Positions 41,116 through 46,410 of a stretch of DNA of 64,000 nucleotides are shown here, piece by piece; position 1 is the first letter of the stretch; each line of letters begins with the position of its first letter. This stretch comes from Aequorivita sublithincola DSM 14238 (GTDB lineage: Bacteria; Bacteroidota; Bacteroidia; Flavobacteriales; Flavobacteriaceae), in contig NC_018013.1 of the NCBI RefSeq assembly GCF_000265385.1, positions 3,082,501-3,146,500 on the forward strand, given 5' to 3'. Below the pieces are notes generated by a model. That model saw only the letters and a program-made list of their open reading frames with translations, made no database searches and was not told where the DNA came from. The translations under genes and the position numbers were made by a program.

Positions 41116-41430
41116 ATAGATTAGGAATTATTTGATAATATACTTAAAATTAAAAAAACTAATATAAGGTTTAGGAATATTTTAATAGGTTGGAAATGTA
41201 TAAAAATAAAATCTTTTAAAAAATTTATATTCAGGCAACCAAGATTTATAATTAAACACTTTACGAAATAGCAATTGATGTGAGGCCACATTCCAGTATT
41301 GATTCTTTCCACTGCCTTGATAATGAACCGCGCAAAAAATATAGGGATGAATAAAAGTGGAAATTTAAACTTGAAAAGTTTAATATTTTAGCCAAATTAA
41401 ACTAAACAAAGACGTTTATCAATTTTCACT

Positions 41431-42864
41431 TTAAAAAGTCCAGTATGTAAAATTATTTTTAACTATTGACTTTAATTTGCGTTCGTCAGGCGTTTCGTTC
41501 TTTTCAAGAATCGTAGTTATATCATCCAATAAGCTTTTAGTTTCGGCAAAATAACCATGGCCTATAAAATTAGTATCTACTTGGCTTGCGTCTATGGTTT
41601 CTATTCCTTTTGCACATACAATGTTTTCTCCTCCGTCACCAGCTCTTCGTAAGTGCTTGCGCAAGTTGCGTGAAAATCCCAAAGCTTTATCTTTGGAAGA
41701 AACATAGAGTGTAACTTGACCAGTTGTACTTCCTAAAAGCATGGGAGCAATATCGTTGATGAAAATCTGCGCATCTATATCTGGTGCGGCAAGTATAATT
41801 TGAGTGAATTTAGTTTCCTCTTTAAAATAATTTTCTTCTTGAAGTTCAACTAAAGCCCTTGTTAATGCTCGATTGCCCATGCTATGTGCAATTAAGTGTA
41901 GTTTTTTGGCCTTTGTTTCTTGCTGTAAATCTTTTAAAAATTGTAGAATGTGTTTGTGACTATATTCTACATTGTCCAAATCACTTATATAACCATCCAC
42001 GCTTGCTCTTGATGGCCAACTGTAGCATATAGGTGCACCTTTAAAACTCACATCATGGGCTATTTGTGCGGTACGCATAACGGCTTCATCAAAAGATACG
42101 TTATAGCCATGCATAAAAACAAAAGCATCTTTTTCATCTGAAGTTGCGATAGTTTCCTTAAGGCTTCTGAAAAATTTATTTCTAGCTATAATTTTCTGCT
42201 CCAATATCATTACATATTTATCAGCATTTTCGCGAAATTGCAATTTCCACCATTTAGGACGAGGTATATCCCCTAGTTTCCTATTCCTCGGAATACTAAC
42301 CGACACAGTGCCATATTTGAGAGCGCCACGCTCCACTCCAAATTTAATTTTGTTCTTTTTTAAGTATGTATTACGGTCTGTGGCAAAAAACACCAAAACA
42401 TCAAAACTACCATCATCCTTAGCTTCTGGAGGGATGCTCTTTTTATTTTGGCTACGGGTTTGCCTAGAGACTGATGGAGGCCTCTCAGCCATAGAAGGGT
42501 ACGGTATTGGTGAAGGCATTGCTTCAATATCTTTTTTGAAAATAAACGGATCTGTATATGGCTTATTTATAAATATAACCAGTTTTGTTTCGGCCGTATT
42601 GTCTTTTTTTACATTAAGAGAATATGTGCCAATATTCTCACGATCCCCTTTTCTTCTTAATTGTAATGTTGCGGTTTCATTCTGTTCAGCGGTGATAATA
42701 ATAGTTACAATTATATTCCTTTTTCCTACAATAGAATATTCCATTTCCCATTTGCTGTTCTTCTGCTTTATCCATAGCGCTTGGTCTATTTCAATATTAT
42801 CTATTGCTATTTGAACGTTCCGAATATTTGTGCAGCCCAATTCAAAAATAAGTTGAGTTTCCAT
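41431..42864 (-). CDS. DUF900 alpha/beta hydrolase with N-terminal beta domain
   Basis: A 477-residue protein in three parts. Residues 1-115 are beta-rich with no known motif. Residues 116-150 form a Pro/Ser-rich linker containing TRSQN (136-140). Residues 155-477 are an alpha/beta hydrolase of the DUF900 type: VFFATDRN near 158, FMHGYNVSF at 250-258, the nucleophile elbow AHSMG with Ser328, PDID near 361, and a candidate His436 (GHGYF). It may be a lipase or esterase. It follows the CHAT protease by 49 bp. The same TRSQN occurs in the first gene of the cassette, so the CHAT protease may cut both; that is inference. Confidence 0.85.
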   Translation of the reverse strand: METQLIFELGCTNIRNVQIAIDNIEIDQALWIKQKNSKWEMEYSIVGKRNIIVTIIITAEQNETATLQLRRKGDRENIGTYSLNVKKDNTAETKLVIFINKPYTDPFIFKKDIEAMPSPIPYPSMAERPPSVSRQTRSQNKKSIPPEAKDDGSFDVLVFFATDRNTYLKKNKIKFGVERGALKYGTVSVSIPRNRKLGDIPRPKWWKLQFRENADKYVMILEQKIIARNKFFRSLKETIATSDEKDAFVFMHGYNVSFDEAVMRTAQIAHDVSFKGAPICYSWPSRASVDGYISDLDNVEYSHKHILQFLKDLQQETKAKKLHLIAHSMGNRALTRALVELQEENYFKEETKFTQIILAAPDIDAQIFINDIAPMLLGSTTGQVTLYVSSKDKALGFSRNLRKHLRRAGDGGENIVCAKGIETIDASQVDTNFIGHGYFAETKSLLDDITTILEKNETPDERKLKSIVKNNFTYWTF

Positions 42865-42913
42865 ATCTGTATTATAAGAAATTTATAAAATGCTTAACTA
42901 ATGATGAAAAATT

Positions 42914-44938
42914 TCAATCAACCGCTCCTAGGTAGAAGAAATTTCCCCAATCACGATACTCTGGATGATTTTTTCTGGTATGTCGCTGTGCTATTTGAAA
43001 CGATTCCTTTTTACTTTTTCCTTCTTTAATTGCTGTATAAAAACTAACAAAAAAAGTTTCGCAAGACATAGTTTCAGCTTCCCATAAACTACCGATTATA
43101 GTAGCTACACCTGCCTTTAGGAAAGCTGCGGGTATACCCTGAAGATTATCCATAACATCAAACCTACCCAAGGCTGTTTCGCAAACACTTAAGGTTAACA
43201 AATCTACATTTTCAGCATTCAGATCCATCAATTGCCACGCGGGAAGCCCATCTCCATTATGTTTTGAAGATATTAAAAGTACATTTTGAAATGCGGGTGC
43301 CGTTACATTCATTTTACCATGGGCACATAAATGTATTCGTTTTGCAACAGTAAAAGCTTCTATAAAGTTAGCTTCGGTTGCATCGCCATTTTTATCTGTA
43401 AGCGCCTTATTTTTAAATATTTTAGCAACTTTTTTGGCTTCTGCAATAGCATTGGCAAGCTTTGGAATATTTAATTTTGAGGCTTTAGCATAACCAAGAC
43501 CAAAGGATGCCATTTCAACAAATTGTATGTCTGGAGTTGCGTAGTTTTGTTTTAATGTTAATAAATGTAAGTTCGGTAAGCTCGTTACTAACCATTCATC
43601 GCAAAGTAAACCGTCTTTATAAGGCAAAAGGTGAAATGGATAATAATGATACGCCCCATGTGGCTGCATCATAAGGTGAGTTTTTCCAGCCAATTTATAG
43701 GCTTCCAAATATGGAGTGATTGGTCCTAACAACATTTCGGAATCTGTGGCAAGCAGTTCTAAACCTTTTGTGGTACAGTTTTCATAGCCATAAGGTGTAT
43801 CTTGAATTTCTTTTCGCACATCAGGCACGTTAAAGGCAAGTACAGAAGTATTTGTTGTTATTCCTTCACTAGAAATTTCCACATTCCCAGCAGGCATATT
43901 TTCGTCTACGGCATAATTTGCTTTTACATCTTCTTTAGTAATTAATAAAAAATAATTTGCTGCTTTTCCAAAAGCATCTCCTGCCATAAACTGAATGCAA
44001 AGCACCGTGTCCTTACCAATGGCATCTTGTACATCTTTTAAAAAAAGCAACGGATAATCACCATGCTCAATATCTTTCAGCATATAGTTCTTTAGCCAAC
44101 GATCAAAATCAATTTGAAGGTTTTTAATTTTAGTTTCAAGACTATTTTCCTCCTGCTTTTCTTTTTCACCTAGGTAGGCGGACATCAACATTTCTTCGTC
44201 AATTGCAGGAATTACTCCTTCTTGTTGTGAGATTTCTTGTTGACTTTCAACAACTTGAATTTTCTTAAGCAGTTCTACTCCCAAACAATCGGGATTTGGT
44301 AATTCCGTGGGAAGTTTCAACATCGCACCATAAGCAAATCCCTTTAAATGCTGCAATAAAAGCAGAAGCGCTTCACTATTAACAGGCTGATTGTCCATAT
44401 AAATACGAAGAATTCCATTATATAATTGATGTTGTAATTCATTTAAAACAGAACTGCGGAAGGCTTCTAAAACAAAAGCATTGCCAGAAAGTTTAGAAAG
44501 TATAGCGTGTGCACTTTTTAAATCAAACTCGGGAATTAGGTTTATAAGTTGTAGCAATAAATTCCTTACAATTTTGTGATCCTTATTTTTAATAGCAACT
44601 TGCATTGCTTTAAGGTATTCTTCTATAGCACTTGGCGTTTGGTCTGCATTCAAAAAAGCATTCGCCGTTTTAATATGAATTAGGCTATCCTCTCGTTCTG
44701 TCTTCAACAATAAGTTTTCGTCTTCAATTTGATCTTGAATCTTTGATACTTTTGATACTAATTTCAGTAAAAAAAGAGCACGATTATAATACTCCCCCTG
44801 CTGTTGATGTCTCCAATCATCCATAATCTGCCAATTGTCTGAGTTTAACAATTGTGGATATTTAACAATAGCTTCCAATACCGAATGTTCTCCGAATTGG
44901 GGTTCTTCAATTATGCTATTGAGTATGGACGTTGTCAA
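42914..44938 (-). CDS. CHAT domain protease with helical N-terminus
   Basis: A 674-residue caspase-clan protease. The N-terminal 270 residues are helical and repeat-like, with TPR-like stretches near 88-130. The CHAT domain occupies about 400-674, with the catalytic His540 in RIHLCAHG and Cys586 in LSVCETALG, then GIPAAFLKAGVATIIGSLW and the C-terminal NPEYRDWGNFFYLG-like end (HPEYRDWGNFFYLG). CHAT proteases act in signalling and in bacterial immune systems such as gasdermin or Craspase modules. It lies between a 254-residue unknown protein (21-bp gap) and a DUF900 hydrolase, all in one operon. No sensor domain is identified. Confidence 0.9.
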   Translation of the reverse strand: MTTSILNSIIEEPQFGEHSVLEAIVKYPQLLNSDNWQIMDDWRHQQQGEYYNRALFLLKLVSKVSKIQDQIEDENLLLKTEREDSLIHIKTANAFLNADQTPSAIEEYLKAMQVAIKNKDHKIVRNLLLQLINLIPEFDLKSAHAILSKLSGNAFVLEAFRSSVLNELQHQLYNGILRIYMDNQPVNSEALLLLLQHLKGFAYGAMLKLPTELPNPDCLGVELLKKIQVVESQQEISQQEGVIPAIDEEMLMSAYLGEKEKQEENSLETKIKNLQIDFDRWLKNYMLKDIEHGDYPLLFLKDVQDAIGKDTVLCIQFMAGDAFGKAANYFLLITKEDVKANYAVDENMPAGNVEISSEGITTNTSVLAFNVPDVRKEIQDTPYGYENCTTKGLELLATDSEMLLGPITPYLEAYKLAGKTHLMMQPHGAYHYYPFHLLPYKDGLLCDEWLVTSLPNLHLLTLKQNYATPDIQFVEMASFGLGYAKASKLNIPKLANAIAEAKKVAKIFKNKALTDKNGDATEANFIEAFTVAKRIHLCAHGKMNVTAPAFQNVLLISSKHNGDGLPAWQLMDLNAENVDLLTLSVCETALGRFDVMDNLQGIPAAFLKAGVATIIGSLWEAETMSCETFFVSFYTAIKEGKSKKESFQIAQRHTRKNHPEYRDWGNFFYLGAVD

Positions 44939-44959
44939 TTTGTAGTGGCAAATAAAGTT

Positions 44960-45724
44960 TTATCGGCTATATAAATCTATTTCAGAAATATAATCCCCTA
45001 CTTTATTCTGAATTAAGGCTAAAACATCATTCCTGTTTTTCGCAAAACTCTCAATATTTAAGGTAGCTCGACGGTTTATGTATTCTAATTTGGTTTTGTC
45101 TTGGGCAAATTCAAAAAACAAAATATGCTTCATTTTGGTACTGGACGTAAGCAAGAAGGTGCCAACCTGAAGCATAACCGTATCATTTTTTTCCACAGCA
45201 GCGGCCAACTGAAAACAACTTTTCTGCAAAGGCATGCTATTTGCTTCAAAAGCAATGAGATTTTTACTTTCCTTTTTAGTTTTAAGAGCGTTTAGGGTTT
45301 TTGTTATTAACCCGATAAAACTATTGCCAAATGCACTAACTAAAATATCTATAACCACATTCTCTACCTTTAAAATACTGCCTTTGGCTTCATAAGTATT
45401 TACATCACCGCCTTCTAATACCCATCCCAAATTTGAAAGCACTTTTACATATTCTTTACACCAATTAATAGCATCCTTATCTTCCGAAGAGTATTTTTTA
45501 TTGGCTACCATCTGCGCAACTAGCGTACAATTCAAAACATCTTTCCGAGATTGTTGACTAACGCCAGCAGCAAAGGAAACTATGGTTTTATCTGCTAAAA
45601 AAGATTGCTCACTATCCGATGTCTTTGGCACATCAGAATTTTGACTTCGAGTAACTCGCGGTGCGGGAAAGGCCATTACTGGATCCTGCAATTCAAGAGA
45701 TTGAATATATTGTTTGGTTGTCAT
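44960..45724 (-). CDS. Unknown protein, first gene of the CHAT cassette
   Basis: A 254-residue protein I do not recognise. It has no signal peptide. Residues 1-40 are polar with the motif PRVTRSQN (22-29). Residues 45-90 look helical with two Cys, 95-150 hold a mixed region with hydrophobic VVIDILVSAFGNSFIGLI, and 165-235 are beta-rich with alternating hydrophobic strands (FQLAAAVEKND, VMLQVGTFLLTSS, HILFFEFAQ). That layout would fit a protein that can insert into membranes, such as a gasdermin-like effector, but I see no decisive motif. It shares TRSQN with the hydrolase of the same operon. It may be a substrate of the adjacent CHAT protease. Confidence 0.7.
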   Translation of the reverse strand: MTTKQYIQSLELQDPVMAFPAPRVTRSQNSDVPKTSDSEQSFLADKTIVSFAAGVSQQSRKDVLNCTLVAQMVANKKYSSEDKDAINWCKEYVKVLSNLGWVLEGGDVNTYEAKGSILKVENVVIDILVSAFGNSFIGLITKTLNALKTKKESKNLIAFEANSMPLQKSCFQLAAAVEKNDTVMLQVGTFLLTSSTKMKHILFFEFAQDKTKLEYINRRATLNIESFAKNRNDVLALIQNKVGDYISEIDLYSR

Positions 45725-45918
45725 AAAAATTATTTTTTGAATTCAGCCATTAAATTAATCAATATTTCTAAATATTCTTCAAATTTAAAGCAGTAAAACA
45801 AACTTCTATATAATTTAAGAAATTGGAAACCAATGAATTCTGAATAAAAAAGACGTTAATATTTCCTTAAACCACCTTATTTATCGCCCTATTTCGTGGA
45901 ATTGGGCATTGAAACCCA

Positions 45919-45926
45919 TAGTTTTG
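45919..45926 (+). promoter_or_regulatory. -7 promoter box of the FKBP gene
   Basis: TAGTTTTG fits TAnnTTTG 34 bp before the ATG. No TTG lies at the proper distance upstream (the nearest is 14 bp away), so this is a weak call. Confidence 0.4.
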
Positions 45927-45960
45927 CCACTTATTGAACAATAATTGAAAAAACAAAATT

Positions 45961-46389
45961 ATGAGTCAAGTACAAGGAAATGAAACCGTAAAACTTCATT
46001 ACACAGGAAAACTGAACGACGGACAGGTGTTCGACAGTTCAATTCAACGCGAACCACTTGAGGTAAAACTCGGTGAAGGCCGTTTAATACCTGGTTTTGA
46101 AAAAGGATTGGTGGATATGAAAGTGAATGAAAAGAAAACCATAACCATCCCTAAAGAAGAAGCTTACGGCGAAGTTCAAAAAGAGCTTTTCCAAAAAATA
46201 CCTAATGAAAACCTACCACAGGAAATAAAGCCAGAAGTAGGAATGGGACTTATGTCTAAAAACCCTGATGGCTCTGAGCGCCAACTTCGTGTTGCCGATG
46301 TAAAAGATGATTTTATAATCGTAGATGCCAATCACCCACTTGCTGGTCAGGATTTAACCTTTGAATTGGAATTGCTAGAGATAAAGTAA
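45961..46389 (+). CDS. FKBP-type peptidyl-prolyl isomerase (SlyD-like)
   Basis: A 142-residue cytoplasmic peptidyl-prolyl cis-trans isomerase with chaperone activity. The FKBP half has VKLHYTGKLNDGQVFDSS near 11-28 and GEGRLIPGFEKGLVDMK near 38-54. The insert-in-flap domain spans about 65-120, and the protein ends NHPLAGQDLTFELELLEIK, as in SlyD. The His-rich metal-binding tail of E. coli SlyD is missing. The gene stands alone between two convergent neighbours. Confidence 0.94.
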   Translation: MSQVQGNETVKLHYTGKLNDGQVFDSSIQREPLEVKLGEGRLIPGFEKGLVDMKVNEKKTITIPKEEAYGEVQKELFQKIPNENLPQEIKPEVGMGLMSKNPDGSERQLRVADVKDDFIIVDANHPLAGQDLTFELELLEIK

Positions 46390-46410
46390 TTTTTTTCAGA
46401 AGAATATATA

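What the first reader, a model, noticed from the sequence alone, without database searches (positions are those of the whole stretch)
41431..45724. CHAT protease cassette with a shared TRSQN motif in both partner proteins
Seen: three minus-strand genes with gaps of 21 and 49 bp encode a 254-residue unknown protein, a CHAT protease (His540, Cys586) and a DUF900 alpha/beta hydrolase. The pentamer TRSQN occurs in both non-protease proteins (residues 25-29 at 45638-45652; residues 136-140 at 42445-42459), each time in a disordered-looking linker. The codons are ACT CGA AGT CAA AAT and ACC CGT AGC CAA AAT, so three of five differ and the match is at protein level. Known: CHAT proteases are clan CD enzymes that activate nearby effectors by cutting at specific sites (bacterial gasdermins, Craspase). 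Inference: this is a protease-effector system in which CHAT cuts after the Arg of TRSQN, freeing the hydrolase from its N-terminal domain and trimming the 254-residue protein, perhaps as anti-phage immunity.
Basis: partly seen in the sequence, partly recalled or inferred. Interest (0 to 1): 0.85.

Follow-up and report, generated by a model that had tools for sequence, protein, structure and literature searches.

The report
Protease-activated cytolysin and hydrolase cassette
A small accessory three-gene cassette appears to pair a caspase-like protease with a toxin-fold protein and a hydrolase that carry the same conserved cut-site-like motif, which would make it a bacterial counterpart of gasdermin-type cell death built on a different pore-forming fold.

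Summary
The three genes, gaps, residues and both TRSQN copies are as described. TRSQN itself is weak evidence (a shared 5-mer has P=0.09). Its core is not: R-x-T-R is invariant in both linkers, in 7 of 7 cassette-clade homologues of each protein, while most of the linker varies. Nine more distant DUF900 relatives lack it.

The 254-residue protein (U) has a recognisable fold: its model (pLDDT 78) matches Cyt delta-endotoxin, volvatoxin and Evf, well above unrelated folds. Its only stretch below pLDDT 50 (residues 21-34) holds the motif, where Cyt toxins have their propeptide. U relatives occur in seven phyla; in 19 of 28 single-copy loci a CHAT, caspase-like or trypsin-like peptidase gene lies beside U or one small ORF away. 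Some loci add nSTAND, SIR2 or amidase genes. Four congeners show the empty site, so the cassette is an accessory insert.

Best reading: CHAT cuts after R-x-T-R, removing the propeptide of a pro-cytolysin and the N-terminal domain of an alpha/beta hydrolase, so that both damage the cell's own membrane, probably as abortive defence. Fold, motif conservation and linkage are computed here; cleavage, activation, membrane target and phage trigger are inferred.

The parts
44960..45724 (-). U: 254-aa protein with Cyt/Evf (cytolysin) fold, putative pro-effector
   Evidence: ORF; model pLDDT 78.3, pTM 0.81; structure matches
45647..45724 (-). U residues 1-26, putative N-terminal propeptide (helix 3-9 and linker up to the putative cut)
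   Evidence: model secondary structure; position of the Cyt1Aa propeptide (PMC7052140 passages); cut is inferred
45647..45658 (-). R-V-T-R (U residues 23-26), putative CHAT recognition/cut site
   Evidence: R23, T25 and R26 are the only invariant columns of U 21-38 in 7 sequences
45623..45664 (-). U residues 21-34, the only segment with pLDDT under 50
42914..44938 (-). CHAT protease (PF12770 at residues 402-671), unnamed N-terminal half
43319..43321 (-). His540 of CHAT, putative catalytic
   Evidence: invariant in 6 sequences; sequence read
43181..43183 (-). Cys586 of CHAT, putative catalytic
   Evidence: invariant in 6 sequences; sequence read
41431..42864 (-). H: DUF900 alpha/beta hydrolase with N-terminal domain and linker
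42454..42465 (-). R-Q-T-R (H residues 134-137), putative CHAT recognition/cut site
   Evidence: R134, T136 and R137 invariant in 7 sequences; in H 106-155 only P123 and K141 are also invariant
42400..42549 (-). H residues 106-155, variable linker between N-terminal domain and hydrolase
41188..45850 (.). approximate extent of the inserted cassette
   Evidence: flank matches of four cassette-free congeners stop at 41187-41228 and resume at 45845-45948

Best explanation
The locus is an accessory protease-effector cassette. The CHAT protease, switched on by an unknown signal probably sensed through its unnamed N-terminal half, cuts after the second Arg of R-x-T-R in both partners. In the Cyt/Evf-fold protein U this removes a 26-residue N-terminal propeptide and turns a held pro-cytolysin into a membrane-damaging one. 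In the DUF900 protein it frees the alpha/beta hydrolase from its N-terminal domain. Both products attack the cell's own membrane and stop an infection by killing or arresting the cell. Shown here by computation: gene order, fold, flexible site, motif conservation in both partners, family-wide linkage to peptidases, accessory insertion. Inferred: cleavage, that it activates, membrane target, phage trigger.
Confidence: 0.6

Rival explanations
1. R-x-T-R is a docking motif: CHAT, or its N-terminal half, holds both partners through it, and cutting happens elsewhere or not at all.
For: Short conserved islands in variable linkers are also typical of docking motifs (general knowledge). Nothing here distinguishes binding from cutting.
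Against: The island lies between a conserved N-terminal helix and the U fold, and between the two domains of H, where a cut would separate parts. P1 basic residues recur at this column in 15 of 19 peptidase-linked U rows of several peptidase types.
Confidence: 0.2
2. U is mainly an exported toxin (like Evf or Cyt) against other organisms; the CHAT protease matures it before or after release, and H assists. The system serves attack, not self-directed defence.
For: The nearest folds are insecticidal or virulence proteins; some U relatives are tandem copies without a peptidase hit (17 loci).
Against: Relatives lie with nSTAND1, SIR2_2, caspase-like and trypsin-like genes, typical of intracellular conflict systems; L145 lies near a gene annotated ABC-three component system. 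No signal peptide is apparent by eye in U or H; no predictor was run.
Confidence: 0.14
3. Chance similarity: the two linkers share letters by accident and the genes only happen to be neighbours.
For: The pentamer itself is near chance: 9.4% of shuffles, 98 of 741 ORF pairs.
Against: R-x-T-R is invariant in both partners across the clade; column shuffles rarely give it (149 and 1,283 of 200,000). The three genes stay together in L060 and sit as one insert.
Confidence: 0.06

Closest known systems
Bacterial gasdermins with adjacent proteases (Johnson et al. 2022, not held; seen through passages of the review PMC9612521)
   Same: Small membrane-attacking protein encoded beside caspase-like and other proteases, held inactive by a short terminal peptide and cut after Leu or Arg; amidase and trypsin are among the abbreviations of its gene-neighbourhood figure.
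   Different: U has a Cyt/Evf fold, not seen to match gasdermin in these searches; the putative peptide is N-terminal, not about 20 residues at the C-terminus; a second putative substrate (hydrolase) shares the site.
Cyt delta-endotoxins, volvatoxin A2 and Evf
   Same: Fold of U; N-terminal propeptide (Cyt1Aa: 37 N-terminal and 7 C-terminal residues removed; PMC7052140 passages).
   Different: No sequence-family match; encoded with a CHAT protease in an accessory cassette instead of relying on host gut enzymes.
canu and Hachiman/AVAST nuclease-protease pairs (PMC12799240 passages)
   Same: A pro-effector gated by flexible segments and unlocked by an adjacent trypsin-like or caspase protease.
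   Different: The effector there is an MBL-fold nuclease; here a cytolysin fold and an alpha/beta hydrolase.
VMAP ternary systems (Kaur et al. 2020, PMC7159879 passages)
   Same: A caspase-superfamily domain always accompanied by a neighbouring alpha/beta hydrolase.
   Different: No MoxR or vWA gene directly beside the window cassette, whose neighbours are an aminotransferase and an FKBP gene.
Craspase (Csx29-Cas7-11)
   Same: CHAT protease with weak sequence similarity over the catalytic part.
   Different: No CRISPR effector directly beside it; far under the Csx29 model cut-off (31 of 300 bits).

Membership tests
CHAT proteases (PF12770) | CHAT domain over the curated cut-off | tested here: met
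   114.4 bits, cut-off 24
CHAT proteases (PF12770) | conserved His and Cys | tested here: met
   H540 and C586 invariant in 6 sequences; both stretches align with a solved TPR-CHAT
CHAT proteases (PF12770) | protease activity | not testable with these tools
   needs a bench assay
Cyt/Evf fold group | overall fold | tested here: met
Cyt toxins (sequence family) | match to a Cyt Pfam model | tested here: not met
   no Cyt model among families matched at E <= 0.1 by any of 54 members
Cyt toxins (sequence family) | membrane permeabilisation | not testable with these tools
   needs a liposome or cell assay
Bacterial gasdermins | gasdermin fold | tested here: inconclusive
   no gasdermin row in the listed matches; Pfam finds no family in U
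Bacterial gasdermins | cut near the C-terminus | tested here: inconclusive
   the conserved motif is at residues 23-26; where U is cut, if at all, is unknown
Bacterial gasdermins | adjacent caspase-like/CHAT/trypsin-like protease | tested here: met
   window CHAT; 19 of 28 single-copy relatives
Craspase (type III-E) | Csx29 model over cut-off and Cas7-11 beside it | tested here: not met
   31 of 300 bits; direct neighbours are an aminotransferase and an FKBP gene
VMAP ternary systems | MoxR and vWA genes | not tested
   only direct neighbours were identified, by reading ORFs; no model search for MoxR or vWA was run
PADLOC-listed defence systems (2023) | model match of the three window proteins | tested here: not met
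   0 matches at E <= 1; peptidases beside U in L008 and L020 match its 'caspase' and 'chat' models
Anti-phage defence | protection against phage | not testable with these tools
   needs a plaque or growth assay

The most novel reading that the evidence does not exclude
Cyt/Evf-fold proteins form a second class of protease-gated membrane effectors in bacterial immunity, parallel to gasdermins and served by the same interchangeable proteases (CHAT, caspase-like, trypsin-like). In this clade one CHAT protease fires two effectors, a cytolysin and an alpha/beta hydrolase, through one shared R-x-T-R site, which would also explain why caspases and alpha/beta hydrolases co-occur in conflict systems.
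Probability: 0.5. Interest if true: 0.92.

Novelty: new variant of a known kind. Interest (0 to 1): 0.82.

Why it matters
If true, gasdermins are not the only membrane-attacking proteins that bacteria hold in check with a short peptide and release with a caspase-like protease: a fold known from insecticidal cytolysins does the same job inside the cell. It gives a defined candidate motif for a CHAT protease with two natural substrates, a rare handle on CHAT specificity, and a testable reason for the reported caspase/alpha-beta-hydrolase pairing.

Tried and rejected
TRSQN as the recognition unit: rejected, since Q and N vary and the pentamer is near chance. Other TRSQN in the genome: a degenerate DNA pattern gave 11 places including the pair; by codon reading two others could spell TRSQN, and neither does so in the ORFs of 60 aa or more listed there.

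A further R-x-T-R in CHAT itself (RHTRK, residue 652) was considered as a self-cut site and dropped: in the 5 homologues the first Arg is not kept and one has A-R.

Rows left out: alignment A4 dropped P0005 (N-terminal extension in the record), L020 and L038 (truncated), L051 (near-copy) and the second and third tandem copies; L020 is therefore not in the 19-row count. Of the 23 non-own H loci, 8 were fetched with wider flanks. The seven H rows called the cassette clade include P0014 and P0015, whose contexts are unknown, as is that of U relative P0001. The peptidase profiles were each grown from one seed inside the fetched loci; Pfam checked 8 genes.

Full report
Anatomy. Three minus-strand genes, U (44960-45724, 254 aa), CHAT (42914-44938, 674 aa) and H (41431-42864, 477 aa), follow each other with gaps of 21 and 49 bp. 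CHAT matches PF12770 at residues 402-671 and H matches DUF900 at 233-446; U matches no Pfam family. None of the three matches PADLOC at E <= 1. CHAT has weak similarity to Csx29 (31 bits, cut-off 300). H540 and C586 are invariant in the window's CHAT and five homologues, and both stretches align with a solved TPR-CHAT (E 0.00036).

The shared motif. A shared pentamer between U and H is not remarkable: 9.4% of 20,000 shuffles give one and 98 of 741 ORF pairs in the window share one. Homologues tell more. A search of about 5.8 billion proteins, sensitive to relatives sharing short exact words, found 12 U relatives and many H relatives. Among U and its six nearest relatives (P0001-P0006), 7 of 7 have R-[VI]-T-R at the same place; P0007 has RVLR; P0010 and P0011 have LTRS; P0008, P0009 and P0012 have K in the aligned column. 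Among H and its six nearest relatives (P0014-P0019), 7 of 7 have R-[QE]-T-R; the other 9 of the 16 rows, including P0020 at 52% identity, have none. In U residues 21-38 the only invariant columns are R23, T25 and R26; in H residues 106-155 they are P123, R134, T136, R137 and K141. The residue after the motif is S, S, G, D, G, G, R in U and S (6) or G (1) in H. Shuffling columns gives an invariant R-x-T-R in 149 (H) and 1,283 (U) of 200,000 shuffles; this ignores relatedness. Within 39 ORFs of 150 aa or more in the window, R.TR[SG] occurs only in these two linkers.

Linked pairs. In the window and in L060 (a 3,682,614-bp contig of the same genus, the length listed for Aequorivita sp. H23M31) the U-CHAT-H order and both motifs were read from DNA. 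P0003/P0016, P0004/P0017 and P0006/P0019 are inferred to share contigs from equal contig lengths; all carry R-x-T-R in both. As a control, 8 H relatives from other genomes, read with 14-16 kb of context, had 0 of 8 R-x-T-R, 0 of 8 a U or CHAT neighbour by these profiles, and 1 of 8 (L116) C14-like genes in the stretch.

The wider family. A scan of one genome for each of 84,980 species returned 45 loci with U relatives in Bacteroidota, Pseudomonadota, Actinomycetota, Planctomycetota, Nitrospirota, Spirochaetota and a cyanobacterium (phyla assigned by me from organism names). Profiles made here for CHAT, caspase-like C14 and trypsin-like peptidases, run over ORFs of these loci, place a peptidase gene next to U, or one small ORF away (L009), in 19 of 28 single-copy loci (L008-L016, L018-L021, L023, L030-L032, L037, L039; eight are Dyadobacter). 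No such hit: L017, L022, L024, L027-L029, L035, L038, L040, of which L027 and L035 begin at a contig end. In the other 17 loci U is in two or three tandem copies with no peptidase hit. Pfam confirmed C14 in L008 and L018, CHAT in L020 and L023 and Trypsin_2 in L031 and L058, and gave a subtilase near U in L059; L058 and L059 come from the family search of 397 genomes and are outside the 28. L018's caspase is fused to an alpha/beta-hydrolase-like domain (DUF7379, with weak Abhydrolase_6). L020 reads SIR2_2, nSTAND1, CHAT, U, with U linker TQTRSAE. nSTAND1 genes also lie in L010, L018 and L023. A distant U (26% identity) on a conjugative Sinorhizobium plasmid is followed by an amidase and a serine protease, as in L058 (amidase, then trypsin-like). 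At the column of R26, 15 of 19 peptidase-linked rows (window included) have R or K, against 5 of 24 other locus rows, and 11 of 11 P rows of mostly unknown context; relatedness and gap placement are not controlled, and outside the cassette clade the motif is not R-x-T-R.

Mobility. U is in 2 of 28 genomes of the genus and 3 of 397 sampled genomes of the family. The FKBP gene beside it is in 25 of 28 genus genomes. In four of these (L124, L127, L129, L137) the aminotransferase lies beside the FKBP with no cassette: flanks match the window up to 41187-41228 and resume at 45845-45948; most others have different genes there. L060 matches the window over 41433-46406 at 68% DNA identity, cassette plus FKBP but not the aminotransferase side.

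Mechanism. I commit to proteolytic release: CHAT cuts after the second Arg of R-x-T-R in U and H, yielding a mature cytolysin and a free hydrolase that damage the cell's own membrane, most likely as abortive defence. The fold, flexible site, conservation, linkage and insertion are computed; the cut, its activating effect, membrane action and trigger are inference. The logic is established elsewhere: bacterial gasdermins lie beside caspase-like and other proteases and are cut after Leu or Arg (PMC9612521, passages), and pro-nucleases are unlocked by adjacent trypsin-like or caspase proteases (PMC12799240, passages). Kaur et al. report that in VMAP systems a caspase domain always has a neighbouring alpha/beta hydrolase (PMC7159879, passage); a shared site would explain such a pair. 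The main rival, a docking motif, cannot be excluded here.

Novelty. The kind (protease plus gated effector) is known. A Cyt/Evf-fold effector family linked to these proteases, and one site shared by two partners, I did not find in the searches made (listings, with passages read in five papers). The library lacks most subscription papers, so absence is weak evidence.

Noticed in passing
L025, L026, L033, L034, L036, L041-L052: U relatives occur as two or three tandem paralogues in Streptomyces, Cupriavidus and Pseudomonas, with no peptidase hit: perhaps a multi-component membrane-active protein.
   Followed up: no
45961-46389: The FKBP gene beside the cassette has different neighbours in different congeners, and an FKBP gene also lies a few kb from U in L058: possibly a variable site.
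   Followed up: partly
L009-L016, L019, L058, L145: U often lies beside an N-acetylmuramoyl-L-alanine amidase, fused to a caspase-like domain (L009-L016, L019) or as a separate gene followed by a trypsin-like or serine protease gene (L058, L145).
   Followed up: partly
window genome (G000): The genome has five CHAT matches, including the window's; the others were not studied.
   Followed up: no
H relatives (P0034, P0040, P0075, P0101, P0111, P0124): By their precomputed Pfam accessions, DUF900 hydrolases also occur with other domains N-terminal or nearby (names recalled: kinase, FHA, TIR, ankyrin, HU, cold-shock), so the partner domain seems often exchanged.
   Followed up: no
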